This document shows, in pieces, positions 3,917-39,242 of a stretch of 39,242 nucleotides of DNA. The DNA is from Mariprofundus sp. Its GTDB lineage: Bacteria; Pseudomonadota; Zetaproteobacteria; Mariprofundales; Mariprofundaceae. Position 1 is the first letter of the stretch; each line of letters opens with the position of its first letter. The notes beneath the pieces were generated by a model. The model had not been told where the DNA came from, did not search any database, and saw only the letters and a list, made by a program, of their open reading frames with translations. A program made the translations under genes and the position numbers. Location: positions 1-39,242 of the forward strand of contig JAJFLE010000083.1 of assembly GCA_021772835.1 (NCBI GenBank), in the 5' to 3' direction.

Positions 3917-3939
3917 ATGCGGCACACGAGGAGATGAGA

Positions 3940-4896: not shown

Positions 4897-5001
4897 TTAT
4901 TTCTGTAGGCTGTTGTAATAAGCGTTTACGGCACGTTTATGCAACAGCTATAACATCGCCTACGCCCTTTCTAGTCTATAGCAAATCACAGTAAGCAACA
5001 C
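4897..5001. other. Convergent gap with nested inverted repeats
   Basis: The 105 bases between the convergent accA and TPR genes contain two nested inverted repeats: GTAGGC (4905-4910) with GCCTAC (4958-4963), and GCTGTTG (4909-4915) with CAACAGC (4942-4948). They may help bidirectional termination, but there is no T-tract on either strand, so I do not call a terminator. Confidence 0.35.
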
Positions 5002-6432: not shown

Positions 6433-6448
6433 TGGACGCAACACCTGT

Positions 6449-8680
6449 TTACGGAGTGTACCCAAGCTTAATTGCTTGAGTGAATGACTTGTTAGACTCA
6501 TCAATCATTGCATTATAACCCTGAGCAACACCCAGAATGTACCAAGCCTGTCCGTTCTCTTTATCAGATTCGACAATACTTGACGCTACTTTCAGAGCCT
6601 CCTCGAATTGTCCCTGCTTAACATAGTGGCGGGCAAGCTCAAGCCTTGATTCTCCTCCGCCTTCGCTCTCACTTTTCGTTTTCAATTCGGCCAATGAAGT
6701 GTTTTGCTCATTTTCGGCGTAAGCGATAAGCCAGCTCCCGCTTTTTTTATGCAACGCTTCAATTGAATGATAGTACTTTCTGTAATCTTTTGGAGATAGA
6801 AGAAGTGGTTGCTGCTTAAACTCCATAAACACGTAATAGCTTCTATCCTTTTTTTCGCCCTTCTGATTAACAATATAATAATCGTTTCCCACGTTTCCAC
6901 CTGAATGTACGACCATAGGAAAACGCCATTTCTTATCATGAAAATTTGCCTTGATCTGAAGAACTCTGGGTTGTTTCTCAAGCCAATCATTCTTCCTTGT
7001 TTCTGGAATTGGAAGCGGTCCTTGAGAATTAAACATGCGGTATGCCTGAGAAATAGCTACGGATGGGAAGATTTCTTGTTTGCCATTATTTGACTTGAGA
7101 TCAAACGTTGCCTTTAGGGTAATGGGATGCCACAAATCGTTATGGTGAAGCACTTCGGTATCCACTTTCACTTCCCCTTTTTCAAGGGTAATGAGCGAGG
7201 AAACCATACTTTTTAAGTTCGTTTCACGGTTATGGTCTCTTAACCACCAGTCACGAAATGCCTGTTCATATTCTCCGGAGAGATGAGTGCTCATAACCAC
7301 ATTCAGGCTACCATTCTTATTGGTGGTAAAATCAAATTCGAGTCTTGCCAGATTTTCAGACAAATCCTCCTGCTTAATCCTTGTCAATCTTCCACCATGA
7401 CCATTAAGAATAAATGCAGGCTGATCAAGCAAACTGTTGTAAATACCGGGGAAAAGTCCTCGATCTGAAGTTGTATCCATCCACATCGCAGCCTGTCCTT
7501 TTTCAGTCTGGGGGATATGTACAACCATATGATCGAAGCTTAAATGAACCAGATCCATATCTGGCCGACCTACGCGTCGGGTGGCAATCAGTGCTGGGTA
7601 AGCATCAATACCAAGCTCCCTTAACAGGGCAACAGTCAGAATCGTCTGATCTTTACAGTCGCCATATTGCTTCCGGATTATTTCATCCGCTTGATGGGGC
7701 TCATACCCCCCTCGACCCAGATGGGCGTAGACATATCGAATGTTCTGCTGCAAATACGCATACACGGCTCTGATCTTCTCATCCCGTCTATCACCGGAGC
7801 GAGCTATTTTTTTGGCAAGTGCTGAAACCGCCGGAGAGGATTGGAATTTATCCCGAGCTAGATTCCATGACCATGAATCAACATCGGCCCATTTTTTACT
7901 GGTTGATACTCGGATTCTTTTTCTCACAGTATCGAGGTCAGGCATATGTCTTTCAATGGAGATTGCAGGCAAACGATCCCAACTCCACGTGTGCACCTGT
8001 CTATTGGTTTTATTTTCAACATCATAATCAGTTTTACCCGGGCCAAACTCTTTGGTATGGATTTCCATATTCTCCGGAAGGTCTAACTCATATGAAGCCT
8101 CACGCACCTGATCCACCCTTAACCCGTTGCCTCCAGCTGTGGGTTGGAACCAGTAGTTATTGGATCGGTTATAAAAGAACCCAGGCATTGCCAGTTTTTC
8201 ACTTCGAATACGCAACTGAAATTCAATGATTGAACCTGGATTTATATCAGGCAGGGAAAATGCCAATTCAGAATCTTCAGAATAAAAATCCTGCCCACTT
8301 TTATCACGTCGTTGTATCGCATCAACAGCTACTGGCTTCAGCACCCCCTTACCACTGAGAACATTGGCAAACTCTAGTTCGATAGTGCTGTAATAATGAT
8401 TATATGGAATCACGATACGGCCATAATCCCGTGCTGCATCAAGATCATTGATCTGTATGGAGTAGTACCGCACCTCTTCCCAGTGCTTATCTTCACGGAC
8501 TGTTACTTGTTTAATTGAATAGAGGACTTCAGCACCCGCTCCCCGACTCCATATACTGGACTGCTGCTTCAAACTGGGTGCCATACTTTCTGCATAAGCT
8601 GACGAGGAACACACAAGCAACAGAATTATCATTGCCGATCGTAAATATCTGCTTGTAAAATAACCTACAGACAAAATCAT
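6449..8680 (-). CDS. Secreted DUF3857/transglutaminase-like protein with C-terminal TPR
   Basis: The 743-residue protein has a signal peptide (AMIILLLVCSSSAYA), a DUF3857 region (roughly 55-220) and a transglutaminase-like domain. Its triad can be seen: Cys342 in YGDCKDQT, His384 in FDHMVVHI and Asp402 in MDTTSD. Two TPR units lie near the C-terminus (LELARHYVKQGQFEEALKVA and the stretch after it). Proteins of this build are periplasmic with papain-like folds and are thought to act as proteases or cross-linking enzymes; the substrate is unknown. ATG 8680 is preceded by a G-rich ribosome site about 6 bases upstream, while a TTG at 8707 would be an alternative. It shares an operon with the downstream TPR gene. 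Confidence 0.85.
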   Translation of the reverse strand: MILSVGYFTSRYLRSAMIILLLVCSSSAYAESMAPSLKQQSSIWSRGAGAEVLYSIKQVTVREDKHWEEVRYYSIQINDLDAARDYGRIVIPYNHYYSTIELEFANVLSGKGVLKPVAVDAIQRRDKSGQDFYSEDSELAFSLPDINPGSIIEFQLRIRSEKLAMPGFFYNRSNNYWFQPTAGGNGLRVDQVREASYELDLPENMEIHTKEFGPGKTDYDVENKTNRQVHTWSWDRLPAISIERHMPDLDTVRKRIRVSTSKKWADVDSWSWNLARDKFQSSPAVSALAKKIARSGDRRDEKIRAVYAYLQQNIRYVYAHLGRGGYEPHQADEIIRKQYGDCKDQTILTVALLRELGIDAYPALIATRRVGRPDMDLVHLSFDHMVVHIPQTEKGQAAMWMDTTSDRGLFPGIYNSLLDQPAFILNGHGGRLTRIKQEDLSENLARLEFDFTTNKNGSLNVVMSTHLSGEYEQAFRDWWLRDHNRETNLKSMVSSLITLEKGEVKVDTEVLHHNDLWHPITLKATFDLKSNNGKQEIFPSVAISQAYRMFNSQGPLPIPETRKNDWLEKQPRVLQIKANFHDKKWRFPMVVHSGGNVGNDYYIVNQKGEKKDRSYYVFMEFKQQPLLLSPKDYRKYYHSIEALHKKSGSWLIAYAENEQNTSLAELKTKSESEGGGESRLELARHYVKQGQFEEALKVASSIVESDKENGQAWYILGVAQGYNAMIDESNKSFTQAIKLGYTP

Positions 8681-8752: not shown

Positions 8753-8780
8753 AAAAAAAACACCCCGCCGAAGCGAGGTG
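8752..8780 (-). terminator. Rho-independent terminator of the cold-shock gene
   Basis: On the - strand the sequence reads an 8-bp stem (CACCTCGC with GCGGGGTG, one G-T pair) closed by a TTCG tetraloop (8761-8780) and followed by nine T residues (8760-8752). It begins 23 bases after the cold-shock stop codon and is a textbook intrinsic terminator. Confidence 0.93.
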
Positions 8781-8803
8781 CTTTTAAATCTTGCTTGGGT
8801 TGT

Positions 8804-9007
8804 TTACTGTGGGTAAACGTTACGAGCCTGTGGGCCCTTCTGTCCGTCTTCTACTTCAAACTCAACTTTCTGACCTTCAACAAGTGATTTGAAACCGTCA
8901 CCCTGAATAGCTGAAAAATGTACGAAAACGTCGTCGCCGCCGTCGTCCTGAGCAATAAAGCCGAAGCCTTTAGTATCGTTAAACCACTTAACTGTTCCTG
9001 TAGCCAT
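8804..9007 (-). CDS. cspA: Cold-shock protein, CspA family
   Basis: This 67-residue single cold-shock domain binds single-stranded nucleic acid and acts as an RNA chaperone in the cytoplasm. It carries [18 protein letters not shown] with RNP1 (KGFGFI) and RNP2 (VFVHF), and ends in [10 protein letters not shown], full length for the family. The ATG at 9007 has AGAGGT about 10 bases upstream. A strong terminator follows and the preceding gene has its own terminator, so it is monocistronic. The roughly 250-base leader between them could hold a long 5' UTR, common for cold-shock genes, but the promoter is not clear enough to mark. Which of several csp paralogues this is cannot be told. Confidence 0.95.
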
Positions 9008-9257
9008 TTTGAAATGTACCTCTATCTAAATATAATTATCTGCATTCATGCTTCAGACGAGAAATTTAGTGGCGTAATCCAAGGAACGAGCCCTACAATT
9101 GTCCATAAAAACCATCAATAATCATGTTCTGCGCTGCGCACTGTATGCCAGCGAGAAACATTAATCCAGTAAATTATTAAATAAATACTGGCCGTGCCTT
9201 CAACCTGTCACACAATCCACCTGCCAAACACCCCCTTGAGAGTCATCTCCACAAAGC
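9008..9257 (-). other. Leader and promoter region of the cold-shock gene
   Basis: No gene is visible. An AT-rich palindrome has outer arms CCAGTA (9166-9171) and TACTGG (9186-9191). On the - strand TGGACA near 9105-9110 could be a -35 box, but its -10 partner is weak. The region probably holds the promoter and untranslated leader of the cold-shock gene. Confidence 0.35.
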
Positions 9258-26501: not shown

Positions 26502-28610
26502 ATGACTACACAACCTCTCCTTATTGAAATCGGCATTGAAGAGATTCCGGCAGGTCTGGCTGAAAAACTACAGCGTAATATGGCAGTTGCCATTGATAAG
26601 CTGCTGAAGTCCAATGGTGTGGAACTGGATGCCGGTGACTGGACACACGCCTGCACACCGCGCCGAATCCTGATTCATGTGAATGACTGCCTGACCAAAC
26701 AACCGGATCGTGATGAAACCATCTGGGGGCCACCTGAAAAAGTAGCATTTGATGGTGAAGGCAATGCGAGCAAAGCCGCTGAGGGTTTTGCAAAAAAATC
26801 CGGTCTGTCCGTGGATGATTTCTCTCTGGAAGATAAAGGTGATGGCAAAGCCCGTTACATGAAGGCTGTGGTGCACAAAGCCGGTCGCAATGTGGCCGAT
26901 ATTCTGGCCGAAGCCATGCCAGACATTTTACGCAAACTACCAAGCCCTAAACAGATGAAGTGGAATGACGGCGCCACCCGTGATGATGCCTTTATTCGCC
27001 CTATACGCTGGATTGTTGCAAGGCTTGGTAAGGACGTGATTCCATTTTCCTATGCAGGTGTAAACAGCGGTAAACAGAGTCGTGGTCATCGCATTGCCGG
27101 TTCTGTCGGTGAACTGGACATCCATGACCCGATAGCCTGGCTGGCTGAGCAAAACGTGATGGCAAAACGTGAAGATCGCATCACACACATCAATAAAACC
27201 ATGCAGGCACTTTGTCAGGCTGAAGGATTGAAAGTGATTGCCGATGATGAATTGGTAGAGGAAGTAGCTGACCTGACCGAATGGCCAGTGCCTTTGCTGG
27301 CCGAGTTTGGCGAAGCGTATTTGCGCCTGCCGGAAGAGGCGAGTCGCATTACCCTGAAGGCACACCAGCGCTGTTTTGTAACCCACGATAAAGCTGGCAA
27401 TATCTCCAATAAATTTATTGCTGTTGCCAACATTGAATCGAAAGACGTTGCAAAAGTTGCCGAAGGCAATGCCCGCGTGGTGAATGCCAGGCTTGCTGAT
27501 GCAGCGTTCTATTTTGACCGCGATCCATCTGAAACGCTGGATGCTCGTGTTGAGAAACTCAATGGCGTCACTTTCCAGGAAGGTCTTGGCATGGTTGGCG
27601 ATCAGGTACGCCGCATGCGCTCTTTCGTACAGGATAATGCTAAAGCCATAGGAGCCGATACCGATGCAGCACAGCGAGCTGCTTATCTGTGCAAGTCGGA
27701 CCTTACCACAGGGCTGGTGTATGAGTTCCCTGAATTGCAGGGTTATATGGGCGGTGTTTATGCACGGATGAACGGTGAATCGGATGCAGTAGCTCAAGCC
27801 ATTGCTGGACATTACCAGCCTGCGGGTGCCGAGGATGCTCTGCCGGAATCAGCAGACGCAAGAGCTATCGCCATCGCCGAGCGCATCGACAAATTGCTGG
27901 GATATTTCCATCTGGGCCGCATCCCTACTGCCAGTGCCGATCCGTTTGCTTTGCGCCGTGCAGCTATTGGCCTGATCCGCCTGCTGGCTGACACCACACA
28001 GCCGGTTGAAATGACGCTGAATCAGGTCATCAATGAAGCGGCCAAACAGTGGAATCAGCAGCGTGTTACCATTGCGATTGCAGATGAGACCAAACATCAG
28101 GTGCATGATTTCATTATTGAACGCCTGTTGGGTTTGAGCACATCTATGGGCTTCTCGAAAACATCGATGGATGCGGCGGTGAACTCATCAGAGACTCGCC
28201 CGCTTTACCAGGAAGCCCTGATTGCCCGCCATCTGATGGGTTTTGAGAGTTCAGAAGAGGGGCAGGCGATTGCCGCAGCCAACAAACGTACTGCCAACAT
28301 CCTCAAGAAAGCGGCATCTATACCGTCAGAAGTGGATGCATCACTGTTCTCGGAGGATGCGGAAAAGGCTCTGTTTGAAGCGCTGGTAGCCGCTGAATCC
28401 GGCTTTAATCAGGCTGTATCTGCAGGTCCGTTTGAGGAGAGTATCTCTCCTGCACTGGCTGAATTGGCTAAGCTGCGCACTCCGGTTGATGCCTTCTTCG
28501 ATGATGTCATGGTGATGGCCGAGGACGAGAAGGTGCGCGCGAATCGTTTGGCACTGCTCTCCCGCTTGAGGGCACTGTTTCTCAATCTGGCTGACATCTC
28601 ACGCCTGTAA
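26502..28610 (+). CDS. glyS: Glycine--tRNA ligase beta subunit
   Basis: The 702-residue beta subunit (E. coli 689) binds tRNA and completes the alpha2beta2 synthetase. It begins PLLIEIGIEEIPAGLAEKLQ, the family signature. Further typical parts are THACTPRRILIH, RPIRWIVARLG, ITLKAHQRCFVT, NARVVNARLADAAFYFDRD, an HD-like middle (KSDLTTGLVYEFPELQGYMG) and a C-terminal anticodon-binding region ending RLRALFLNLADISRL. The ATG at 26502 has AAGGTGA nine bases before it. It follows glyQ after a palindromic spacer and is followed by a MEKHLA-type gene 11 bases on. Confidence 0.97.
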   Translation: MTTQPLLIEIGIEEIPAGLAEKLQRNMAVAIDKLLKSNGVELDAGDWTHACTPRRILIHVNDCLTKQPDRDETIWGPPEKVAFDGEGNASKAAEGFAKKSGLSVDDFSLEDKGDGKARYMKAVVHKAGRNVADILAEAMPDILRKLPSPKQMKWNDGATRDDAFIRPIRWIVARLGKDVIPFSYAGVNSGKQSRGHRIAGSVGELDIHDPIAWLAEQNVMAKREDRITHINKTMQALCQAEGLKVIADDELVEEVADLTEWPVPLLAEFGEAYLRLPEEASRITLKAHQRCFVTHDKAGNISNKFIAVANIESKDVAKVAEGNARVVNARLADAAFYFDRDPSETLDARVEKLNGVTFQEGLGMVGDQVRRMRSFVQDNAKAIGADTDAAQRAAYLCKSDLTTGLVYEFPELQGYMGGVYARMNGESDAVAQAIAGHYQPAGAEDALPESADARAIAIAERIDKLLGYFHLGRIPTASADPFALRRAAIGLIRLLADTTQPVEMTLNQVINEAAKQWNQQRVTIAIADETKHQVHDFIIERLLGLSTSMGFSKTSMDAAVNSSETRPLYQEALIARHLMGFESSEEGQAIAAANKRTANILKKAASIPSEVDASLFSEDAEKALFEALVAAESGFNQAVSAGPFEESISPALAELAKLRTPVDAFFDDVMVMAEDEKVRANRLALLSRLRALFLNLADISRL

Positions 28611-29247: not shown

Positions 29248-29324
29248 GCACCCTTAGCTCAGCTGGATAGAGCATCGGCCTCCGAAGCCGAAGGCCAGTG
29301 GTTCGAATCCACTAGGGTGCACCA
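29248..29324 (+). tRNA. tRNA-Arg (anticodon CCG)
   Basis: The 77-base gene folds as a full cloverleaf: acceptor GCACCCT/AGGGTGC, D-arm GCTC/GAGC, anticodon stem TCGGC/GCCGA around loop CTCCGAA (anticodon CCG, reads CGG), variable AGGCC, and T-arm AGTGG-TTCGAAT-CCACT. CCA is encoded. It stands about 260 bases upstream of the polyene-like operon, a typical place for island insertion. Confidence 0.96.
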
Positions 29325-29583: not shown

Positions 29584-29835
29584 ATGCTAGACGAGCTCAG
29601 AAGCTTGCTGATAAATGAACTCAATCTTGAAGATGTGAGAGCTGAGGACATCAAGGATGATGAACCGTTATTCGGTGGTGGCCTGGGGCTGGACTCTATC
29701 GATGCACTTGAATTAGCCATTGTTATCGAACGAACCTACGGCGTAAAAATCAAATCAGGTGATGATAACAACGAGAGAATTTTCTCATCTCTTTCGGAGT
29801 TGGCAAAACATATCAAAGCAAACCGCAGCAAATAG
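29584..29835 (+). CDS. Acyl carrier protein of the aryl-polyene-like pathway
   Basis: This 83-residue ACP carries the growing chain on a 4'-phosphopantetheine arm attached to Ser38 in GLGLDSIDALELA. It is acidic, with the usual four-helix pattern. It opens the operon (AGGGAG ribosome site) and is followed without a gap by the COG4648 membrane protein. APE clusters usually begin with two ACP genes in tandem; only one is present here. That means one was lost, or the second function is served from elsewhere. Call from position and motif together is secure for ACP, while the pathway name is inference from the neighbours. Confidence 0.93.
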   Translation: MLDELRSLLINELNLEDVRAEDIKDDEPLFGGGLGLDSIDALELAIVIERTYGVKIKSGDDNNERIFSSLSELAKHIKANRSK

Positions 29836-30444
29836 TTGAGCAAACTGATCAGATCCATTGCCGTTACCCTGCTGGTGCTGGGTTACCCGCTGCTGGTTTA
29901 TATGGCAATCACGAACGGGGTCTCCTGGATATTTCCACTGGTCGTCGGAGCGATTTTTTTCAAGCGCTTTCGCGCAGGCGGAGATTCGTCTCTATTTTAT
30001 GGCCTGATCGCGTTAGCCCTCTTCTGCGGCGCCATATTCTTCCAGACCATAAGCGCCAAGATGATTCCAGTCTTGATCCATACCAGTATGTTTCTGGTTT
30101 TCTACGGCAGCCTGCGTACTGACTCTTCACTTATCGAACGCTTCGCCCGTCTCGATTTTCCTGAGCTACCACCGGGTATTGCCGAGTACTGTCGCAAGGT
30201 GACCTGGCTCTGGTCAGGCTTTTTTGCCCTGAATATTCTGTTCTGCTCGGCCCTTGCCATCTGGGCGGATGATGCTTTCTGGGCGCTCTATAACGGTGCC
30301 ATCATCTACCTGTTGTTGGGTACCATGATGGTCTCTGAATATGTCTGGCGGCGCATGAGTTACCCGTGGCTGGAAGTTCCACCGCTGAAGCAAAGTATGA
30401 TGAACATCATCAAGAACGGCCATACTGTCTGGAACAGTAAATAA
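29836..30444 (+). CDS. COG4648-type membrane protein of APE clusters
   Basis: The 202-residue protein has about five or six transmembrane helices (near 8-25, 28-45, 55-72, 76-92, 127-147, 152-168). It resembles the conserved membrane protein found between ACP and ligase genes in APE clusters (COG4648), whose task is not established. The start is TTG 29836, immediately after the ACP stop, with no ribosome site of its own, so it probably depends on reinitiation. It could help with polyene-lipid assembly at the inner membrane, which is inferred from cluster context only. Confidence 0.75.
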   Translation: MSKLIRSIAVTLLVLGYPLLVYMAITNGVSWIFPLVVGAIFFKRFRAGGDSSLFYGLIALALFCGAIFFQTISAKMIPVLIHTSMFLVFYGSLRTDSSLIERFARLDFPELPPGIAEYCRKVTWLWSGFFALNILFCSALAIWADDAFWALYNGAIIYLLLGTMMVSEYVWRRMSYPWLEVPPLKQSMMNIIKNGHTVWNSK

Positions 30445-30447
30445 GCG

Positions 30448-31791
30448 ATGTTTAGCAGCTGCAAGATGAACAACAAAGAAATCATTCTTCGTTTTTCAGC
30501 AGACAGAGCGTTTGCTTACCGTGCCGGGCAGCCGATTTACCCCACTCAACTCTTTGCAGATCTGGCACGAACAGCGCAACTTGTGGGTTCAACCGATGGT
30601 GATATTCTGGTCACCTGTAAGGGCCGTTATGAGTTCTCCGTAGCCCTGCTGTGCATCTGGAGCTGCGGAAAAAATGTTATCCTGCCACCCAACTTACACA
30701 GGACGACACTCGATCATGTTCGCAAGCAACACTGTATCACCAGCGAGCTGAAAGACGGATTCAGCGACGCTGCAAACGTTACGGCTAACTGCGCTGACAA
30801 AAAAATATTTGAACTGCGTTTCAGCAACGATCAACCAGCACTGACAATCTACACCTCCGGATCTACCGGCGCTCCCAAGCCTGTTGTGAAATCGATTGGC
30901 AATATGTTTGCTGAGGCACTTGCTCTCAAAGCATCTTTTGCGTGGCCGGACAAAGCACTTGTCGCCAGCGTGCCCCCTCATCATCTCTACGGCCTGACTT
31001 TCTCGGTCCTGCTGCCGTGGGTGCTGGGTACCCCGCTGGTAAATGAATGCCCGCTGCATGCAGAAGAAGTTGTCGACGCCATCAAGCAGGTCAATGCCGG
31101 AACACTGATTTCTGTGCCGGTTCACCTGCGCGCTCTGCTTGATCAACAATTCAACTCCAGGCCGGACATGGTGATCTCTTCCGCTGGATCGCTCGACAGC
31201 GTTATTGCAGAGCGGTGGCAGCAGAGGTTTGGCCAGCAGATCGTGGAGGTTTTCGGCTCCAGTGAAACCGGTGTCATTGCCTGTCGCAGGCAGTTGTCAG
31301 ATACCTGCTGGGCTGCATTTCCGGAAGTCAGCATAGCCAGCAGTGACGATGGGCTATTGCAGGTCACATCCCCTTTCATCAACGCCAGCGAAGGCGAATC
31401 ATTCCAGACACAGGATTTGGTCTCGATACAGCAGCAGTCCGCTTTCCTGCTGCATGGCAGAGCTGATTCCATCGTGAAAATAGCAGGCAAACGGGTTTCA
31501 TTGCTGAGCATTGAGAATACCATCAAAAGCTGCAAAGGCGTACTCGATGCCGCAGTGACAGCCGTACCTGTTCAAGGTTATATCCGTGATATGGCGATCT
31601 GGGCTGCCGTTTCAACGGGTGAAAAAAGTGGCATCAATGCCCGCAGTATTCGCGCACAGCTGCTGTCTTTGCTTGACGGCATTGAGGTGCCGCGCCGGAT
31701 TGTAGTTCTGAAACAACTACCGCGCGCAGAGAGTGGGAAACTGCACAAGGAACAACTGATGGCGTTGTTTGAGAAGGATATTCAATCATGA
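30448..31791 (+). CDS. AMP-forming acyl-ACP/CoA ligase
   Basis: The 447-residue ANL-superfamily enzyme has the ATP-binding loop YTSGSTGAPKP (135-145), an EVFGSSETG adenine-binding motif and HGRADSIVKIAGKRVS near the C-domain hinge. The C-terminal PRAESGKLHKEQL carries the catalytic lysine. It should activate an aromatic or acyl starter with ATP and load it on the ACP (ApeH-like role in APE pathways). It is shorter than most ANL enzymes (500 or more) but usual for this cluster type. ATG 30448 lacks a clear ribosome site; Met7 (30466) is an alternative. Its end overlaps the dehydratase start by four bases. Confidence 0.87.
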   Translation: MFSSCKMNNKEIILRFSADRAFAYRAGQPIYPTQLFADLARTAQLVGSTDGDILVTCKGRYEFSVALLCIWSCGKNVILPPNLHRTTLDHVRKQHCITSELKDGFSDAANVTANCADKKIFELRFSNDQPALTIYTSGSTGAPKPVVKSIGNMFAEALALKASFAWPDKALVASVPPHHLYGLTFSVLLPWVLGTPLVNECPLHAEEVVDAIKQVNAGTLISVPVHLRALLDQQFNSRPDMVISSAGSLDSVIAERWQQRFGQQIVEVFGSSETGVIACRRQLSDTCWAAFPEVSIASSDDGLLQVTSPFINASEGESFQTQDLVSIQQQSAFLLHGRADSIVKIAGKRVSLLSIENTIKSCKGVLDAAVTAVPVQGYIRDMAIWAAVSTGEKSGINARSIRAQLLSLLDGIEVPRRIVVLKQLPRAESGKLHKEQLMALFEKDIQS

Positions 31792-32102
31792 GTGATTTAT
31801 TCACACACAGTATTGATATTCCGGTGAATCATCCCTGCTTCGAAGGACACTTTCCAGACTTCCCTGTCTTTCCAGCAGTCGGGCAGCTGACCTTGCTTAC
31901 AGAAGCGATTTCCATGTTTCATGGCGGGCCGTGCGTGATCACATCTATTCCCGTCGCCAAATTCCTTAGCCCACTTGGACCCGGAGTAAGCGTTACTATT
32001 GAGTTGCAACACAGGGGTGAAAACAACGCCGACTTCGTAATCATTTCCACCAGAGCCATGGTTGCAAAAGGGATGCTGACATACAGGATAGTGAAACCAT
32101 GA
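31788..32102 (+). CDS. Hot-dog 3-hydroxyacyl-ACP dehydratase, ApeI/FabZ-like
   Basis: This 104-residue hot-dog protein has the FabZ-like motif HPCFEGHFPDFPVFPAV with the catalytic-type His at 21. The Glu found 14 residues after that His in FabZ (in the GVLIVE stretch) is replaced by Thr35, and the usual Gly after MP is Ala. It should remove water from 3-hydroxyacyl-ACP during chain growth. The missing Glu fits a two-protein dehydratase, as reported for ApeI/ApeP, with the partner beyond the window. Start and stop overlap both neighbours in ATGA fashion. Confidence 0.82.
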   Translation: MSDLFTHSIDIPVNHPCFEGHFPDFPVFPAVGQLTLLTEAISMFHGGPCVITSIPVAKFLSPLGPGVSVTIELQHRGENNADFVIISTRAMVAKGMLTYRIVKP

Positions 32103-32830
32103 GCGGAAAGATTTGCGGCCTGATTCCCGTATACAATAATCACATGACGGTTGCCAGGGTCGTAAAGGCACTGCTGGAGCAACTCGATTTTGTCATCGTC
32201 GTTGATGACGGCAGCAATGACGGTACCGAAAAGATAGTTGAAAGCCTGAAACAGGAATATCCAGAGCGCATTGAAATACTGCACCATCCGCAAAATCGTG
32301 GCAAAGGGGCTGCTGTACAAAGCGGGCTGCATCGTGCGAATGCCATGGGTTTCTCCAGTGCGATTCAGGTAGATGCCGATGGCCAGCATAACCTGCTGGA
32401 CCTGCCGAAGTTTTTACAGGGCATAGAGCAGGACCCGAGCGCACTGCTGCTAGGAGCCCCCATATTTGATGATGATATACCCGCCATCCGCAAACATGGC
32501 CGTAAACTGACCCAGATCATGATAGCTCTGGAGATGGGATTCTGGGATGTACCCGATGCCATGTGTGGTTTCAGAGCATACCCTGTCGTGGCGATTTGTC
32601 GGTTGGGGAAAATGGATCCTCGCATGAGCTTCGACCCCGAAGTGATGATTCGCGCCCACTGGGCTGGCATACCACTACAACGCATTCCAACCCGCGTGTG
32701 TTACCTTGCGCCTGAAGAAGGTGGCATCTCCCATTTCAAAATGATCAACGATAATGTACGCCACACCTGGGCGCATATCCGCCTGCTGCTTCAGGCTCCT
32801 TTCCGACAGCTTTACAGGGCGGTGAAATAA
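32099..32830 (+). CDS. Family 2 glycosyltransferase
   Basis: The 243-residue GT-A enzyme resembles dolichol-phosphate-mannose synthases without membrane helices: CGLIPVYNN, VIVVDDGSNDGT, NRGKGAAVQSGL and the metal-binding QVDADGQHN (DxD). It probably glycosylates the polyene or its lipid anchor. In many APE clusters this domain is fused to an acyltransferase; here the two are separate, the acyltransferase starting 4 bases after the stop. The ATG overlaps the dehydratase stop (ATGA). Confidence 0.9.
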   Translation: MSGKICGLIPVYNNHMTVARVVKALLEQLDFVIVVDDGSNDGTEKIVESLKQEYPERIEILHHPQNRGKGAAVQSGLHRANAMGFSSAIQVDADGQHNLLDLPKFLQGIEQDPSALLLGAPIFDDDIPAIRKHGRKLTQIMIALEMGFWDVPDAMCGFRAYPVVAICRLGKMDPRMSFDPEVMIRAHWAGIPLQRIPTRVCYLAPEEGGISHFKMINDNVRHTWAHIRLLLQAPFRQLYRAVK

Positions 32831-32834
32831 GCGA

Positions 32835-33725
32835 ATGAGTGAGTGGATTGAAAAAGAGGAGCGCGGCTCACTGTGGATGATGCGACTGATGTTCTTTCTT
32901 TGCAGGCATACCGGGCAACTGCTCGTGCGTCCTCTGTTGTATCCGATCGTCACCTATTTTTTCCTGACCTCGCCTGAGACCAGAGCCTCATCCCTGCGTT
33001 TCTATAGCCGGGTAAAAGGGCGTGCCGACTGGAAGGACTGTTTTCGTCAGCTCCTTTGTTTTTCCCGCACACTGCTGGATCGAATCTTTATCCTCTCGGG
33101 TAATACAAAGCGCTACACAGTCACCTCACAAGGCCGCGAGATGCTCATTGAAGAGCAAAAGCGGGGTAACGGTATGATTTTGCTTGGCTCCCACCTGGGC
33201 AGCTTTGAAGCGTGCAGGGTGCTGGTTCGGGAGAGGGCGGGTCTGGATGTATATATGGTGGCCTATTTTGCTGGATCGAAAAAAATCCGTGCCATTCTCG
33301 ATGAGCTGAACCCTGAGCTGGCGAGCCGTATCATTGATCCAACCGAGTCTGATGCCATTTTCAAGATGCGCGATGTCATCGAAAAGGGTGGCGTTTTGGC
33401 TATTCTGGCCGACAGGGTGGGAATCGGTGAAAAGAAAACCGTGGCCCGTTTTTTTGGTGAAGAGGTTGATCTGCCCGCTGGCCCCTACCTGCTGGCTCAC
33501 ATTCTCGGCTGCCCGGTCTATAGCTTCTTCGGACTACTCTCCGGCAAATACCATTACGACAGTTATGTAGAGCGTGTTGCACAACGAATTGTCCTTCCCC
33601 GCAAAGAGAGACAGCAGGCTTTGGATCAATATGTTCAGGCTTACGCCGATCGGCTTGAACACTATTGCCGGAAATATCCCTACAACTGGTTCAATTTTTA
33701 CGCTTTCTGGAAGTCGAAACCATGA
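32835..33725 (+). CDS. LpxL/HtrB-like acyltransferase
   Basis: The 296-residue lysophospholipid/lipid A acyltransferase-like protein has an N-terminal membrane-seeking segment and the catalytic HX4E motif (SHLGSFEACR). Later parts are LAILADRVG and FFGEEVDLPAGPYLLAH, typical of LpxL/HtrB proteins. In APE pathways the related domain is thought to join the polyene acyl chain to a lipid or sugar. It starts 4 bases after the glycosyltransferase stop, as if a fused GT-AT gene were split. Its stop overlaps the methyltransferase start. Confidence 0.88.
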   Translation: MSEWIEKEERGSLWMMRLMFFLCRHTGQLLVRPLLYPIVTYFFLTSPETRASSLRFYSRVKGRADWKDCFRQLLCFSRTLLDRIFILSGNTKRYTVTSQGREMLIEEQKRGNGMILLGSHLGSFEACRVLVRERAGLDVYMVAYFAGSKKIRAILDELNPELASRIIDPTESDAIFKMRDVIEKGGVLAILADRVGIGEKKTVARFFGEEVDLPAGPYLLAHILGCPVYSFFGLLSGKYHYDSYVERVAQRIVLPRKERQQALDQYVQAYADRLEHYCRKYPYNWFNFYAFWKSKP

Positions 33726-34231
33726 AGCAGGTGGAGCGAATTCAAGCTGTCGCCGATAGCATGATCTACCTGTTTATAGGGCCATTCACTGTGATCGGTA
33801 CAGTACCGCTGCTGCTCATCGAACTCGACCTCAGCATGGAGCTGCCCCGCTTTGCTTCGGATTTCACAAGCAGCGCGGGCTATCTGCTGATGAATCTCGG
33901 CGCCCTGCTGGCCATCTGGTGCAGCTGGCTGATGCATCGTGGTGGAGGCAGTCCAATTCCTTCTGCACCCGCGGCACAGCTTGTCCGCGCCGGGCCATAT
34001 ACATTTGTGCGTCATCCAATGATGCATTCGCTGCTCATTGTCGGTATTGGTGAACTGCTGGTTAGCGGTTCTCTGCTTATGTTGATCTGGATTCCTGTTG
34101 CCATGCGTGCTGGTGTTCTGTTTGTCTCAACCTACGAGGAGCCGGTACTTGTGGCGCGATACGGCAATGATTACCTGAGCTATTGCCAAGAGGTGCCCCG
34201 CTGGCTACCGAAATGGACACGTCATTCATGA
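33722..34231 (+). CDS. ICMT/PEMT-like membrane methyltransferase
   Basis: The 169-residue polytopic protein carries the signature of the isoprenylcysteine carboxyl methyltransferase/phospholipid methyltransferase family: RAGPYTFVRHPMMHSLLIVG and, near the C-terminus, EEPVLVARYGNDYLSYCQEV. Three or four membrane helices are visible. It should transfer a methyl group from SAM to a membrane-bound substrate. ATG 33722 overlaps the acyltransferase stop (ATGA) and the next gene starts in the same way, so it belongs to the operon. In APE clusters as I remember them, an ammonia lyase gene sits at this position; this gene takes its place. Confidence 0.8.
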   Translation: MKQVERIQAVADSMIYLFIGPFTVIGTVPLLLIELDLSMELPRFASDFTSSAGYLLMNLGALLAIWCSWLMHRGGGSPIPSAPAAQLVRAGPYTFVRHPMMHSLLIVGIGELLVSGSLLMLIWIPVAMRAGVLFVSTYEEPVLVARYGNDYLSYCQEVPRWLPKWTRHS

Positions 34232-34629
34232 GCCAGGACGCGAACATCAGGATAGAAGTGCCATTCCATGATGTCGATATTCTCGGCATAGTCTGGCACG
34301 GTCACTACTACAAATATTTTGAGCTGGCCAGAACGGCTCTCTACAGAAGCTGTGATTTCGATATCAGGAAAATGCAGGCGATGGGATATATCTTTCCGGT
34401 AATCGAAAGCCATTGCCGATATGTTCAGCCGCTGAAATATGGCCAGCAGGTAAGCGTTCGCGCTGCATTCGAAGGACACATCAGTTATATCAAAATATCC
34501 TATACTGTGACGGATGATACGACCGGCCAGCGCGTGGCATACGGGTATAGCAAACAGGCCGTGTGCAACGCAGACAACACCATGTTGATGGCTGTTCCGG
34601 ATGAGGTGATTCATGCAATTTCACGTTAA
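34228..34629 (+). CDS. 4HBT-type thioesterase
   Basis: The 133-residue hot-dog thioesterase has the YbgC-like active site region FHDVDILGIVWHGHYYKYFE with Asp17 as the likely catalytic residue. It could release or proofread acyl groups from the ACP, or release the finished chain. The ATG at 34228 overlaps the methyltransferase stop (ATGA), consistent with tight coupling; ATG 34213 is an alternative. Its end overlaps the LolA-like gene by 17 bases. A thioesterase is regularly found next to the LolA-like gene in APE clusters. Confidence 0.88.
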   Translation: MSQDANIRIEVPFHDVDILGIVWHGHYYKYFELARTALYRSCDFDIRKMQAMGYIFPVIESHCRYVQPLKYGQQVSVRAAFEGHISYIKISYTVTDDTTGQRVAYGYSKQAVCNADNTMLMAVPDEVIHAISR

Positions 34630-35239
34630 GCTGTCGCTGCTTCTGGCATTTCTCCTGCTTGCAGGCAGTGCAACCGCCAACGAGACACTGGAATCGATTC
34701 TCGCGATTGCCGCAAAACAGCAGAATACATCCATCGACTATCGCGAAGTCAGGCATCTGCAGCTGCTTAACGGGCCGTGGCAGGCACAGGGCCGGATGTT
34801 TGTGACTGCCAGTGTCTTCGTCATGGAGCAGCTTGCTCCACAACGTCAACTACTCACCGCCAACAAACATCGTTTCTGGCTTTATGTGCCGGATAAAAAC
34901 ATCCGCCGCACAGGCATGGTTACCACACCCATGGCGCAAAGAAACTTTGCCCTGTTCAAACCGATCATGCACGGTGATAAAAAAGCGTTGGAAAAAGAGT
35001 TTGATATCCATTTCACATCAACCGATGCTCAGTGGTTACTTGAGCTTGAGCCGAAAAGGGCGAATAACACACTCTATTCACGCATCAGCGTCAAAGGAAA
35101 AAATGGTCATGCAGCCGAATATATGAAGGCTGAGATGCCTGATGGCGATTTTACCGAATGGTTTTTTCAGCAACAGCACTTCAGCTCAACAACTGAAAAA
35201 CAGGTTATAAAACTGATGCATGAGGCGAAGGGCAAATAA
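34613..35239 (+). CDS. LolA-like periplasmic lipid carrier
   Basis: The 208-residue protein has a Sec signal peptide (VKLSLLLAFLLLAGSATA) without a lipobox cysteine. A LolA-like beta-rich domain follows (for example HRFWLYVPDKNIRR and ISVKGKNGHAAEYMKAEMPD). It should move the polyene lipid through the periplasm from the MMPL exporter to the outer membrane, by analogy with LolA; this is inferred. Translation starts inside the thioesterase gene (17-base overlap), and the exporter begins 3 bases after the stop. Confidence 0.82.
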   Translation: MQFHVKLSLLLAFLLLAGSATANETLESILAIAAKQQNTSIDYREVRHLQLLNGPWQAQGRMFVTASVFVMEQLAPQRQLLTANKHRFWLYVPDKNIRRTGMVTTPMAQRNFALFKPIMHGDKKALEKEFDIHFTSTDAQWLLELEPKRANNTLYSRISVKGKNGHAAEYMKAEMPDGDFTEWFFQQQHFSSTTEKQVIKLMHEAKGK

Positions 35240-35242
35240 GCC

Positions 35243-37549
35243 GTGCATCGCCGCGTATTTACTTTTCTATTTGCACTGCCGCTACTGCTTTGTGCAGCCA
35301 TATGGCAGGTCGACATTAAAACTGATATTTCAGCGTTCTTTATGGCTGGCGACTCCCCGCAGGCTACATTGCTTGCCAGTAACATGCAGACCGGGGAGCT
35401 CTCCCGTCGCTACCTGCTCAGCATTGGCCAATCTGAACCCGCTGAAAAGCCACTTGAATTTGCCGAAGCGTTACGCAGCAAACTGGCGGAAATCGAGGGG
35501 GTTGGCCGGGTGTGGGGGGAAGGGCTAAACGAAGATGAGATCCGTGAACTGATCAGCTTTTATTTACCCTATCGTCATCATTTTTACGCCCTGAATCCAG
35601 CCAGTGAAGTGCCAGAAGCTTTCTCGGAGAGTGCACTCGCTGCAAGAGCGGAAGCGGTAAAGCAGGGCTTGCTGGGTCCTGAGACGCAGTGGATGAAAAG
35701 CATACTCGCCGAAGATCCGATGTTTTTTATCTCAAGCTGGCTGCGTCGTTTCTCCGGCAGTGCTCAGCATGAGGGGACCTATGCTTCCCTGGTCATCGAA
35801 ACCGTGGCCACGGGCCTGGACACGGCCAGCCAGAAGCCGATCAAAAATAAAATCGAAGAGGCCTTCAGGTTAATCAATCAGGAACATGGCAATCGTTATA
35901 CTCTGGCGATGACCGGTGTGCCTCTGTTTGCCATGGCTGTACAGGAACAGGTGGCTCAGGATGTTATGCTGGTCAGCACCATTTCCATGCTGGCGATGGT
36001 GCTGCTTTTCCTTTTGCTGTTCCGCTCATTTGCAGCACTCACTTCAGTTTTGCTGACGCTGCTTGCATCAGCAACCGTGGCAACCCTCCTGACCTCCATC
36101 GTGTTTGGACAGATTCATGCCCTGACACTGGCGCTGGGCTCCACGCTAATCGGCATCTGTGTCGACTATCCGATTCATACCATGGTGCATGCCGCAGGCG
36201 GCAATGAGCCCGCACCCGAGTCGGCAAAGCGTATCTGGCCCAGCCTGCTGCTGGGAGCCATCACCACCGTTGTTGGTTATGCCGCTTTAAGCTTCACCGG
36301 CTATCCGGGCATGCAGCAGATCGCCCTTTATGCGGCATCAGGCATACTCACTTCGTTGCTTATCGCCCGTTTTATCCTGCCCTATGCCATCGAACGACAT
36401 ATCAGTTCGATGAGACTCGCATTCAGTTGCAGTAGCTGGCTGCATTTCGCAGGTAAGTCTAAGCTGAAGGTGCCGGTCATGATTATTTGTGCACTCCTGC
36501 TGCTGTTCGGCTTATCCGGCATCAATTGGCAGAATGATCTGAGCCGACTGTCTCCATCGCTGGAAGAGCTCAAGGAGAATGACCGGCAGGTGCGCAGCCG
36601 CATGCAAAGTATCGAACCCGCTCGCTTTGTCTTGCTGCATGCCGACACTGTTGAGGAGGCACTTCAGGTCAATGAGGCGGCCGCCATTGCTCTGGAGAAG
36701 GTAAAAGCTGATGGAAAGCTCGATGCATATTATTCTGTTTACCCGTGGGCGGCTTCGCAATCACTCCAGCAACAGAACCTTCGTGCCTTTTCTGAACAGT
36801 TAAACAGTGAGACCATAGCGCGCTGGTCTGCTGCCGTGGACAAAACAGGCATTCGCAGCTCCTCTCTGGCCAGGCCAGTGATTCCGGATATCGCCACACT
36901 GAGCTTCCTGGATGTCACAAAATCTCCAGCCCGGCGCTATATTGCAGGTCAGCATGTCACCACAGATCACGAGGCAATCCTGACCATCTGGCTGGGCAGC
37001 CATGATGCAGAAGCTGTTCGTGGAGCTCTTGCCAACATCAGTCAGGCCCAATATGTCAGCCAGAAGGATATGATCAACGCGATGAATGCGACTTACAGCA
37101 GCAAAGCCATTGAGGCACTTGCATACGGTGCCCTCATTATATTGCTGCTGCTTAGTCTGAGATACCGCAGTGCTACTGCTGCTCTGCAGACACTTTCTCC
37201 GGCCATTGCTTCGGTTGCAATCGTGCTCGGCTGCTGGGGAATATCCGGTCAGCCGTTAGGCATGCTGAATCTGGTCGGCATGCTGCTTGCCGTTGCAATA
37301 TGTGTAGATTACGGCATCTTCTTTTTCGAAAATCGAGCACACAATATGGGACTGACGTATCAGGCTATTGTTGTCTCAGCCCTGACAACCATGGTGGCCT
37401 TCTCATGCCTGGGATTGGCAGAAAACCCGGCCTTGCAGACGCTGGCATGGACTATTGCGCCCGGTGTTTTTCTTGGCTTCTTTCTCTGTCCGCTGCTGAT
37501 TCGTGCGAAAGAGGAAACCTTGCCAGATCAGTCCGGGAGTGAATCATGA
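35243..37549 (+). CDS. MMPL-family RND exporter
   Basis: The 768-residue inner-membrane exporter has the MMPL/RND layout: TM1 near 5-22, a periplasmic domain, a helix bundle at about 230-390, a second periplasmic domain (410-625) and another bundle (630-755). Typical stretches are GSTLIGICVDYPIHTMVH and VGMLLAVAICVDYGIFFFEN, the aspartate-bearing helices of this family. It likely flips or exports the polyene lipid using the proton motive force. Start is GTG 35243, 3 bases after the LolA-like gene. The stop codon overlaps the start of a 13-codon frame that bridges to the ketosynthase gene. Confidence 0.92.
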   Translation: MHRRVFTFLFALPLLLCAAIWQVDIKTDISAFFMAGDSPQATLLASNMQTGELSRRYLLSIGQSEPAEKPLEFAEALRSKLAEIEGVGRVWGEGLNEDEIRELISFYLPYRHHFYALNPASEVPEAFSESALAARAEAVKQGLLGPETQWMKSILAEDPMFFISSWLRRFSGSAQHEGTYASLVIETVATGLDTASQKPIKNKIEEAFRLINQEHGNRYTLAMTGVPLFAMAVQEQVAQDVMLVSTISMLAMVLLFLLLFRSFAALTSVLLTLLASATVATLLTSIVFGQIHALTLALGSTLIGICVDYPIHTMVHAAGGNEPAPESAKRIWPSLLLGAITTVVGYAALSFTGYPGMQQIALYAASGILTSLLIARFILPYAIERHISSMRLAFSCSSWLHFAGKSKLKVPVMIICALLLLFGLSGINWQNDLSRLSPSLEELKENDRQVRSRMQSIEPARFVLLHADTVEEALQVNEAAAIALEKVKADGKLDAYYSVYPWAASQSLQQQNLRAFSEQLNSETIARWSAAVDKTGIRSSSLARPVIPDIATLSFLDVTKSPARRYIAGQHVTTDHEAILTIWLGSHDAEAVRGALANISQAQYVSQKDMINAMNATYSSKAIEALAYGALIILLLLSLRYRSATAALQTLSPAIASVAIVLGCWGISGQPLGMLNLVGMLLAVAICVDYGIFFFENRAHNMGLTYQAIVVSALTTMVAFSCLGLAENPALQTLAWTIAPGVFLGFFLCPLLIRAKEETLPDQSGSES

Positions 37550-37587
37550 TTCGTTTGAATCCCCCCTGTTTCAAGGGAGAGAGATGA
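37546..37587 (+). CDS. 13-codon bridging frame between exporter and ketosynthase
   Basis: The frame MIRLNPPCFKGER starts with an ATG that overlaps the exporter stop (ATGA). It stops in a TGA that overlaps the ketosynthase ATG, again as ATGA. It also contains the ketosynthase ribosome site (GGGAGAG). It may only serve to hand ribosomes from one gene to the next, or may be the remnant of the DUF3261-type lipoprotein gene usually found here. Whether it is translated is unknown. Confidence 0.4.
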   Translation: MIRLNPPCFKGER

Positions 37588-38783
37588 AACCTGTCTTCGT
37601 AACTGCATATACGGCGGTGACAGCTTGCGGTCCGGGGCAAAAAATGCTGCTGGATGCGCTGCTGATGCAGCATAGTTTTTTAAAACAGACCCGCCTGATC
37701 AGTACGAATTTCATCACCTTCACCGGAGAGATCGAGTCACCATTGCCTGTGATCGCAGGCGCATTAAGCTCCTATGGTTCCAGAAATGCACGCATCGCAC
37801 TTGCAGCGCTTGATTGCGAAAATAGTGCATTCAGGCATGCAGTTGCCGCAGCCAATGCCCGCTATGGCGCAGAACGAGTGGGCATTATCATAGGCACAAG
37901 CACCTCCGGCATCTATGAAACTGAACTCGCCTATCAAGCTCGTTTGGCAACAGGAGCACTACCTGAAGACTTTGATTTCAAACACCAGCATGCCTGGGTA
38001 GCTACAGCGGAATTTCTAAAAAAAGAGCTGTCACTTGGCGGTCCATGCTACGCCATTTCGACCGCCTGCTCATCGAGCGGTAAAGCCGTGGCTGCCGGTC
38101 AGCGATGGATTGAAGCGGGGATTTGTGATGCCGTGCTTGTCGGTGGCGTGGATTCGATATGCCATTTGACACTGCATGGCTTCAACAGTCTGGAGCTTAC
38201 TTCTGAGACACCATGTACACCGCTGGATCGGGACCGAAACGGCATAAGTCTTGGTGAAGGCGCAGGGCTAATCTTGCTTGAGCGCGACCGAATCAGCGAC
38301 AAACATGCCGTGTTTGTCGGTTATGGTGAATCATCCGATGCCTACCACATGACTGCACCACATCCCGATGGTGCGGGCTCAGCTCAGGCCATGCGCAGCG
38401 CATTGACGGAGGCTGGTCTGCAACCTGATGCCATCGATTATATCAACCTGCACGCCACCGGCACCCGCCTGAATGACCAGTCTGAGATGCGGGCTATGGC
38501 TTCGGTATTCGAGTCAAAAACAGCATGCAGTGGCACCAAAGGCATGACCGGCCATACGCTCGGTGCTGCAGGTGCAATCGAGGCGGTAATCACGCTGCTT
38601 GCACTGGAACACGGTTTTGCACCTGGTACCTGCGGCATTCGCCATGTCGATGATGAATTCAGCAGTCACCTGCTCACAGAAACCGTTCAGTTGCCCGGCA
38701 TCCGTTATGTCATGAACAACAATTTCGGTTTCGGTGGCAATAATGTCAGCCTGATCTTTGCCAGGGGGACAGCTTATGCGTAA
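37584..38783 (+). CDS. Beta-ketoacyl-ACP synthase (FabF/ApeO-type)
   Basis: The 399-residue condensing enzyme extends the polyene chain by decarboxylative Claisen condensation with malonyl-ACP. The catalytic triad is intact: Cys162 in STACSSSGKA, His290 in NLHATGT and His324 in GMTGHTLGAAG. The C-terminal NNNFGFGGNNVSLIF is typical. ATG 37584 follows GGGAGAG. The next gene overlaps its end by 8 bases and encodes a partner without the active cysteine, the arrangement of a KS/chain-length-factor pair (ApeO/ApeC in APE systems, from memory). Confidence 0.92.
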   Translation: MKPVFVTAYTAVTACGPGQKMLLDALLMQHSFLKQTRLISTNFITFTGEIESPLPVIAGALSSYGSRNARIALAALDCENSAFRHAVAAANARYGAERVGIIIGTSTSGIYETELAYQARLATGALPEDFDFKHQHAWVATAEFLKKELSLGGPCYAISTACSSSGKAVAAGQRWIEAGICDAVLVGGVDSICHLTLHGFNSLELTSETPCTPLDRDRNGISLGEGAGLILLERDRISDKHAVFVGYGESSDAYHMTAPHPDGAGSAQAMRSALTEAGLQPDAIDYINLHATGTRLNDQSEMRAMASVFESKTACSGTKGMTGHTLGAAGAIEAVITLLALEHGFAPGTCGIRHVDDEFSSHLLTETVQLPGIRYVMNNNFGFGGNNVSLIFARGTAYA

Positions 38784-39242
38784 TGACGCATTGGCACTGC
38801 TTGGAACCGGCATCAGCTTTCAGTATCCGGAGCAAGCCCTGGAATTCGGCTATGAAGACTGCGACATGCAAGCCGAACTATTGCCGGCCAGACTCAGACG
38901 CAGGACCAGCACCGCCACAAAAATGGCCTTTGCAGCCGCTGAACGTGCTTGCCGCAGTGCAGGGGTCTCGCCTTCCGAGTTGCCTGTGATTTTCACTTCC
39001 TCGCTTGGAGAGAGCATCGTCACGGACAAGCTTTGCAATGATATTGCACACCAGCGCTTCCCGGTTTCACCAACCCAGTTTCACAACTCGGTGCATAATA
39101 CAGCATCGGGTTACTGGAGCATCGCTGTCGGCAACAGACATCCGGCTATGGCAATGGCCGCTGATCAGGATGGTTTTGCGCTTGCTCTTCTCGAAGCATG
39201 GAGTCAGCTGCATACCCGTGAGGATAAGCTCCTGCTGGTATG
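38776..39242 (+). CDS. Ketosynthase-like partner (chain-length-factor type), partial
   Basis: The first 155 codons are present; the gene runs off the window. It resembles the N-terminal ketoacyl-synthase-like domain (Ketoacyl-synt_2 type) of ApeC-like proteins, with KMAFAAAERACRSAG and PTQFHNSVHNTASGYWSIA. Aligned to the preceding ketosynthase, the active-site Cys is replaced by Ala110 (NTASG), so it should not form an acyl-enzyme. It probably pairs with the upstream KS and helps set chain length. ATG 38776 lies inside the KS gene (8-base overlap) with a GGGGG ribosome site. Confidence 0.82.
   Translation, partial: MRNDALALLGTGISFQYPEQALEFGYEDCDMQAELLPARLRRRTSTATKMAFAAAERACRSAGVSPSELPVIFTSSLGESIVTDKLCNDIAHQRFPVSPTQFHNSVHNTASGYWSIAVGNRHPAMAMAADQDGFALALLEAWSQLHTREDKLLLV

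What the first reader, a model, noticed from the sequence alone, without database searches (positions are those of the whole stretch)
29584..39242. Variant aryl-polyene-like biosynthetic operon
Twelve genes on one strand, mostly with overlaps or gaps of a few bases (ACP, COG4648, ligase, dehydratase, GT2, acyltransferase, methyltransferase, thioesterase, LolA-like, MMPL, KS, KS partner), match the order of APE clusters as I know them. They differ in four visible ways: one ACP instead of two, separate GT and acyltransferase, a membrane methyltransferase where an ammonia lyase is usual, and no DUF3261-type lipoprotein gene between exporter and KS. The product may thus be a polyene lipid with a different head group.
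Basis: partly seen in the sequence, partly recalled or inferred. Interest (0 to 1): 0.75.

Follow-up and report, generated by a model that had tools for sequence, protein, structure and literature searches.

The report
Polyene pigment operon with halopyrrole neighbour
A relative of the iron bacterium Mariprofundus carries a xanthomonadin-like pigment operon beside genes that should turn proline into a halogenated pyrrole, which points to a possible hybrid pigment.

Summary
The twelve genes are real. The window is a whole contig ending inside the KS-partner gene. The operon resumes at base 1 of contig C78: rest of the partner, ApeP-like dehydratase, ketoreductase, flavin halogenase HAL1. No ammonia lyase, ApeF, ApeN or ApeR counterpart follows. 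The four "differences" are mostly the published xanthomonadin/arcuflavin pattern, and the methyltransferase is optional.

The unusual part lies just outside the window: a convergent operon for a carrier protein, a condensation-fold protein (X425), a proline-type ligase, a prolyl-carrier-type dehydrogenase and a Bmp2-like halogenase. X425 was found in 8 genomes, all with the polyene operon: six of the window's class, two gammaproteobacteria. Two other operon genomes show no X425; both are incomplete. One, G104, has dialkylresorcinol genes beside its operon.

Best reading, about 0.5: a xanthomonadin-type polyene lipid joined to a halopyrrole. Bolder reading, 0.22: pyrrole is the polyene's starter. 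Functions are inferred from sequence and fold; no product is known.

The parts
29584..29835 (+). acyl carrier protein (ApeE-like, 83 aa)
   Evidence: PF00550; 43% to E. coli ApeE; GLDSID phosphopantetheine site
29836..30444 (+). COG4648-like membrane protein (ApeG-like, 202 aa)
   Evidence: 37.5% over 96 aa to ApeG; no Pfam hit
30448..31791 (+). starter acyl-ACP ligase (ApeH-like, 447 aa)
   Evidence: PF00501/PF13193; 30% to ApeH; TSGSTGAPK motif
31788..32102 (+). dehydratase 1 (ApeI-like, 104 aa)
   Evidence: FabZ match below cut-off; 36% over 56 aa to ApeI
32099..32830 (+). GT2 glycosyltransferase (matches ApeJ N-terminal half, 243 aa)
   Evidence: PF00535; 44% to ApeJ
32835..33725 (+). Lip_A-type acyltransferase (matches ApeJ C-terminal half, 296 aa)
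   Evidence: PF03279; 31% to ApeJ
33722..34231 (+). PEMT/ICMT-type membrane methyltransferase (169 aa), optional in relatives
   Evidence: PF04191 above, PF04140 below cut-off; no hit in G100, G104, G399
34228..34629 (+). thioesterase (ApeK-like, 133 aa)
   Evidence: PF13279; 35% to ApeK
34613..35239 (+). LolA-like periplasmic carrier (208 aa)
   Evidence: PF19574/PF03548; weak flexirubin LolA2 match
35243..37549 (+). MMPL exporter (ApeM-like, 768 aa)
   Evidence: PF03176; 25% to ApeM
37584..38783 (+). ketosynthase (ApeO-like, 399 aa)
   Evidence: PF00109/PF02801; NCBIfam PRK09185 above cut-off; 42% to ApeO; TACS motif
38776..39242 (+). KS partner / chain-length factor (ApeC-like), cut at the contig end; continues at C78:1
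   Evidence: PF13723; C-terminal part at L045:2-292 matches G017's partner; in-frame junction gives 251 aa, as in G017

Best explanation
A xanthomonadin/arcuflavin-type polyene-lipid operon of a Mariprofundus relative, coupled to a convergent halopyrrole operon. Polyene arm: the ligase loads an aromatic acid, most simply 4-hydroxybenzoate from UbiC, on the ACP; KS plus partner, KR and two dehydratases build the polyene; HAL1 may halogenate and MT may methylate the head; acyltransferase and GT2 build the lipid; MMPL, LolA and MipA place it in the outer membrane. Pyrrole arm: proline is adenylated, loaded on the carrier protein, oxidised to pyrrole-2-carbonyl, halogenated by HAL2, and transferred by the free-standing condensation-type protein X425 to a hydroxyl or amine of the polyene lipid, giving a hybrid pigment, as a dialkylresorcinol is joined to a polyene in arcuflavin. 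Shown here by computation: gene content, adjacency, co-occurrence, homology, predicted fold of X425. Inferred: every reaction, the starter, the acceptor and the product.
For: Continuation of the operon on C78. Layout like arcuflavin, which is in two unlinked loci: KS-partner-DH-KR in a row, halogenase, MipA, one ACP, separate GT and acyltransferase, methyltransferase. Cassette: ligase's best stand-alone PDB hits are proline-carrier ligases 7thn and 6o6e (longer NRPS chains score higher); dehydrogenase best hit L-prolyl-carrier dehydrogenase; HAL2 best PDB hit 5bva, E 6e-66, taken to be Bmp2 because the next hit is its triple mutant as described in PMC5577590. X425: WFHPxxDAKG (HxxxD) in 7 of 7 homologues and condensation fold. 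Co-occurrence: X425 in 5 of 6 operon genomes against 0 of 59 others of the class, p = 7e-7; 6 of 398 phylum genomes, all with the operon; both gammaproteobacterial X425 genomes hold the operon KS at 59 and 55%. UbiC in 9 of 10 genomes. G104 carries DarB-, DarH- and DarG-type genes beside the same operon.
Against: No product is known. The acceptor of X425 is a guess, and its fold matches include epimerisation, heterocyclisation and dehydrating domains, so the fold does not fix the reaction. The two operons are on one contig in 3 genomes and contiguous by inference in G000; in G005, G026, G398 and G399 they are on different contigs. Two operon genomes, G050 and G104, show no X425 or strong prolyl-dehydrogenase hit; G050 is 88% and G104 56% complete. 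The pyrrole operon of G026 has no HAL2, so halogenation is not universal. Dehydrogenase score (271.7 bits) is far below the curated cut-off of 650. Class members are related, so the p-value overstates independence. MipA is not at the junction in G017 (80 bases between HAL1 and HAL2).
Confidence: 0.5

Rival explanations
1. The halopyrrole is the starter unit of the polyene: a pyrrolyl-carrier protein replaces the hydroxybenzoyl starter, giving a (halo)pyrrolyl polyene made by a type II PKS.
For: No XanB2-type chorismatase hit in 10 of 10 genomes and no ammonia lyase in the own genome. In arcuflavin the XanB2 gene sits between halogenase and MipA genes, about where the pyrrole operon sits here. 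No ApeR counterpart, the KS said to start the chain in Xenorhabdus: PF00109 finds in the own genome only one FabF-type KS (so named by inference), the operon KS and one weak hit.
Against: The free-acid ligase is kept in 9 of 9 operons whose ligase region is held (the window copy taken as one), with its ATP-binding motif in the window copy; a carrier-bound pyrrole would not need it. UbiC could offer 4-hydroxybenzoate in 9 of 10 genomes. X425 has the fold of condensation enzymes. G104 has the polyene operon with no pyrrole operon on its 22-kb contig.
Confidence: 0.22
2. Two separate products: an ordinary xanthomonadin-like pigment and a free halopyrrole metabolite, neighbours through co-regulation or shared history.
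For: Bmp1-4 make free bromopyrrole in Pseudoalteromonas. The operons lie on different contigs in 4 of the 8 genomes that hold both.
Against: X425 was not seen without the polyene operon, in two classes. MipA lies between the two operons in G000, G024 and G100, though not in G017. None of the cassette genes scanned is a thioesterase that would release a free pyrrole.
Confidence: 0.2
3. Ordinary xanthomonadin-type cluster; the pyrrole-like enzymes act on something else, such as another amino acid or a lipid.
For: The dehydrogenase is below the curated cut-off and HAL2 is missing from the operon of G026.
Against: Ligase, dehydrogenase and halogenase each point separately to prolyl/pyrrolyl-carrier enzymes.
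Confidence: 0.08

Closest known systems
Arcuflavin clusters of Azoarcus sp. BH72 (PMC3949708; passages and section 18 read) and xanthomonadin clusters (as described there, in PMC8253772 and in PMC3691225; passages read)
   Same: One ACP, AMP ligase, two dehydratases, KS-partner-DH-KR order, separate GT and acyltransferase, methyltransferase, LolA, exporter, halogenase, MipA; arcuflavin is itself a hybrid with a second unit (dialkylresorcinol).
   Different: No XanB2-type chorismatase hit; polyene genes in one run rather than two loci; the second unit is predicted to be a halopyrrole made by a convergent operon.
E. coli CFT073 aryl polyene cluster (L093; PMC8253772, passages read)
   Same: Same core enzymes and largely the same order of the E-to-Q part.
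   Different: E. coli has two ACPs, fused ApeJ, a DUF3261 gene, ApeR and ApeB; its chain-length factor gene lies near the other end; no halogenase is annotated.
bmp1-4 bromopyrrole pathway of Pseudoalteromonas (PMC5577590, passages read) and pyoluteorin plt genes (pltE and pltA named in that passage, the rest recalled)
   Same: Proline ligase, carrier protein, prolyl-carrier dehydrogenase, flavin halogenase.
   Different: Carrier is a separate 77-aa protein without thioesterase; a condensation-fold protein is added; tied to a polyene operon.
Celluxanthenes (PMC12144888; start of abstract in a listing, and one passage)
   Same: A bacterial polyene pigment with a nitrogen heterocycle in the chromophore.
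   Different: Indole, from cellulose-degrading anaerobes; their biosynthesis was not read here.

Membership tests
aryl polyene (APE) type II PKS clusters | KS with a chain-length-factor partner, KR, two dehydratases, ACP, starter ligase | tested here: met
   (dehydratases by weak matches only)
aryl polyene (APE) type II PKS clusters | COG4648-, LolA- and MMPL-type transport genes | tested here: met
E. coli-type APE | second ACP, KS ApeR, fused ApeJ, DUF3261 gene | tested here: not met
   none in the operon or the first 20 kb of C78; PF00109 in the own genome gives one FabF-type KS, the operon KS and one weak hit
xanthomonadin/arcuflavin-type | single ACP; KS-partner-DH-KR order; halogenase; MipA; separate GT and acyltransferase | tested here: met
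   against the table
xanthomonadin/arcuflavin-type | XanB2-type chorismatase supplying 3-hydroxybenzoate | tested here: not met
   TIGR04444: 0 of 10 genomes; the call held no known XanB2 as positive control
xanthomonadin/arcuflavin-type | KS groups with xanthomonadin KS | tested here: inconclusive
   five E. coli-type rows form a group (92/94, not starred) without the window; the row of L028, xanthomonadin-like by its gene set only, is a long, unresolved branch
pyrrolyl-carrier cassette (Plt/Bmp type) | proline ligase, carrier protein, flavin halogenase | tested here: met
   by homology only
pyrrolyl-carrier cassette (Plt/Bmp type) | prolyl-carrier dehydrogenase at equivalog level | tested here: inconclusive
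   best hit NF045652, E 8.5e-81, but 271.7 bits of 650 needed
pyrrolyl-carrier cassette (Plt/Bmp type) | makes a halogenated pyrrole | not testable with these tools
   needs enzyme assay or metabolite

The most novel reading that the evidence does not exclude
The polyene starter itself is a halogenated pyrrole: a type II PKS that builds a heteroaryl polyene lipid for the outer membrane, with X425 handing the pyrrolyl group from its carrier protein to the polyene machinery. More broadly, polyene operons in this class act as a fixed core with an exchangeable second module (halopyrrole in six genomes, dialkylresorcinol genes in G104).
Probability: 0.22. Interest if true: 0.8.

Novelty: new variant of a known kind. 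Interest (0 to 1): 0.58.

Why it matters
If right, it adds a halogenated heterocycle to the aryl polyene lipids, ties a bromopyrrole-type pathway to outer-membrane pigments, and shows that the polyene core can be paired with different second units. It also gives X425, a condensation-fold family without a significant Pfam, NCBIfam or PDB sequence match in the searches made here, and a clear chemical prediction: a yellow lipid with a halogen isotope pattern and a proline-derived pyrrole.

Tried and rejected
XanB2 as starter source: no hit in 10 genomes. Methyltransferase as a defining novelty: rejected, because relatives with the same operon lack it. X425 in viral contigs and plasmids: nothing. 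X425 profile against PDB sequences: nothing significant; only the fold search placed it. KS tree: too long-branched to place the xanthomonadin-like row. DarA in G104: an ORF at L070:3957-5042 had no family hit. One search also gave a second, distant MMPL on C83; its stretch was fetched (L033) but not analysed, nor were L013-L021. The library lacks most subscription journals.
Full report
What is there. The window is a complete contig (G000:C82) that ends inside the twelfth gene. Searches confirm twelve genes on the + strand at 29584-39242 with overlaps or short gaps. Upstream lie a 702-aa ORF (26502-28610; glycyl-tRNA synthetase beta subunit by recall, not searched), a 156-aa ORF and a tRNA-Arg (29248-29324).

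What follows. A ketoreductase of the relative G017 found its 86% match at the start of contig C78 of the same genome. C78 begins with the missing C-terminal part of the KS partner, then an ApeP-like dehydratase, the ketoreductase and a flavin halogenase-like gene, HAL1. The two contig ends share three bases, and reading across them in frame gives a 251-aa partner, the length of G017's. The junction is inferred, not sequenced. The full operon thus has 15 genes. E. coli ApeA, B, F, N and R have no counterpart in the first 20 kb of C78; an ApeD-like acyltransferase lies 11 kb on (29%, L045:12805-13587).

How it compares with polyene clusters. Against E. coli CFT073 (table in PMC8253772) the E-to-Q part is largely collinear, but the window has one ACP, ApeJ split in two, no DUF3261 gene, no ApeR, and its KS partner next to the KS. 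These fit the xanthomonadin type: PMC8253772 says xanthomonadin clusters lack the second ACP, and the arcuflavin table lists KS, KS partner, dehydratase and reductase in a row, with separate glycosyltransferase and acyltransferase, halogenase, MipA and methyltransferase, in two unlinked loci. PMC3691225 says that beside the KS pair only a dolichyl-phosphate mannose synthase-like gene and a halogenase gene are kept, each absent in some genomes. The methyltransferase is in 6 of the 8 operon genomes of the class; G100 and G104 lack it, as does G399. One tested feature of the xanthomonadin type is missing: no XanB2-type chorismatase in 10 of 10 genomes, though that call had no known XanB2 as positive control. 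UbiC is in 9 of 10 (seven of the nine hits are weak, 31-43 bits, but over the cut-off), so 4-hydroxybenzoate is probably available, as in E. coli.

The neighbour. Convergent to the operon, C78 holds MipA, a second flavin halogenase HAL2, an acyl-CoA-dehydrogenase-type protein, an AMP ligase, a 425-aa protein (X425) and a 77-aa carrier protein (L045:2666-8738, minus strand). The ligase's best stand-alone PDB matches are L-proline carrier-protein ligases (longer NRPS chains score higher). The dehydrogenase's best NCBIfam match is L-prolyl-carrier dehydrogenase, E 8.5e-81, though below its curated cut-off. HAL2's best PDB match is 5bva, E 6e-66, which I take to be Bmp2, because the next entry is the triple mutant described in PMC5577590. 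HAL1's best PDB match is 8zop, a halogenase (E 5e-42). Both have a W.W.IP motif (its meaning as a halogenase signature is recalled). HAL2 has F, F and I where Bmp2 has Y302, F306 and A345 (my reading), which hints at, but does not show, multiple halogenation.

X425. No significant Pfam, NCBIfam or PDB sequence hit (one weak WS/DGAT match at E 0.01 in one of seven members). Seven of seven homologues have WFHPxxDAKG, an HxxxD motif. The AlphaFold2 model (mean pLDDT 70.9, pTM 0.77) matches NRPS condensation domains and free-standing relatives such as SgcC5 (TM 0.66-0.68) and the AzeD dehydratase (0.72), but also epimerisation and heterocyclisation domains. An acyltransferase using the pyrrolyl-carrier protein as donor is the most likely role; that SgcC5 forms esters is recalled.

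Are the two operons linked? In the 65 genomes of the class seen by both (own included), the operon (MMPL at 42% or more over most of its length) is in 6 and X425 in 5, all among the 6 (one-sided Fisher p = 7e-7; relatives are not independent). In 398 phylum genomes X425 is in 6, including G100, which also has the operon. Both of these hold the operon KS at 59 and 55%, and their operons carry HAL1. So the 8 X425-bearing genomes found here all have the polyene operon. The two operons lie on one contig in G017, G024 and G100 and are contiguous by inference in G000; in G005, G026, G398 and G399 they are on different contigs. MipA lies between them in G000, G024 and G100; in G017 only 80 bases separate HAL1 and HAL2 and there is no MipA. 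Two operon genomes show no pyrrole operon: G050 (88% complete, contig ends) and G104 (56% complete).

A possible swap. G104, of the same family, has the polyene operon without HAL1 and methyltransferase, and upstream of it genes scoring as DarB (521.5 bits, just under its 550 cut-off; above the cut-off of the StlD/DarB subfamily), DarH (above cut-off) and DarG (above the subfamily cut-off, below the flexirubin one), plus an ABC transporter: a dialkylresorcinol set as in arcuflavin. No DarA hit was obtained. One genome, 56% complete, is thin evidence, but it makes it more likely that the pyrrole operon too supplies a second unit joined to the polyene.

How it most likely works, and rivals, are given in the fields above. 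I put about 0.5 on a polyene-halopyrrole hybrid lipid, 0.22 on pyrrole as the starter, 0.2 on two separate products, 0.08 on another substrate. Variation against a simple story: in G026 the polyene operon has no GT2 and only a fragment of TE, and the pyrrole operon has no HAL2; G050 has no TE; G005 has about 4 kb of other genes between KR and HAL1.

Novelty. The polyene operon alone would be a new member of a known kind. Its tie to a halopyrrole operon with X425 is a new variant; none of the papers listed by the ten searches showed it, reading titles and abstract starts of capped lists in an open-access library.

Noticed in passing
L070 (G104:C52:1-20000), 640-6599: Dialkylresorcinol-type genes (DarB, DarH, DarG, ABC transporter) beside the polyene operon of a relative that shows no pyrrole operon.
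   Followed up: partly
L045:8858-9406 and homologues in L023, L027, L068, L070: A conserved protein of about 182 aa without Pfam hit near the pyrrole carrier protein, also present among the Dar genes of G104 (42% identity).
   Followed up: partly
L045:12805-13587 and homologues in L067, L068, L070/L089, L071, L088: An acyltransferase (PF01553 in L068 and L088) repeatedly near either operon; the own copy is 29% to E. coli ApeD.
   Followed up: partly
G100:C59:33836-34942: A second prolyl-carrier-dehydrogenase-like gene (E 3.3e-76), perhaps a separate pyrrole pathway.
   Followed up: no
L024 and L067 (G026): The polyene operon has no GT2 and only a fragment of TE, and the pyrrole operon has no HAL2: a natural set of losses for testing roles.
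   Followed up: partly
L029:10484-11803, L031:10349-11731, L032:11133-12380: Polyene clusters with E. coli-type genes and a halogenase-like flavoprotein (PF04820) between exporter and KS region, where E. coli has DUF3261.
   Followed up: partly
window 8754-9157, minus strand: Match to the cspA thermoregulator RNA family above its gathering score.
   Followed up: no
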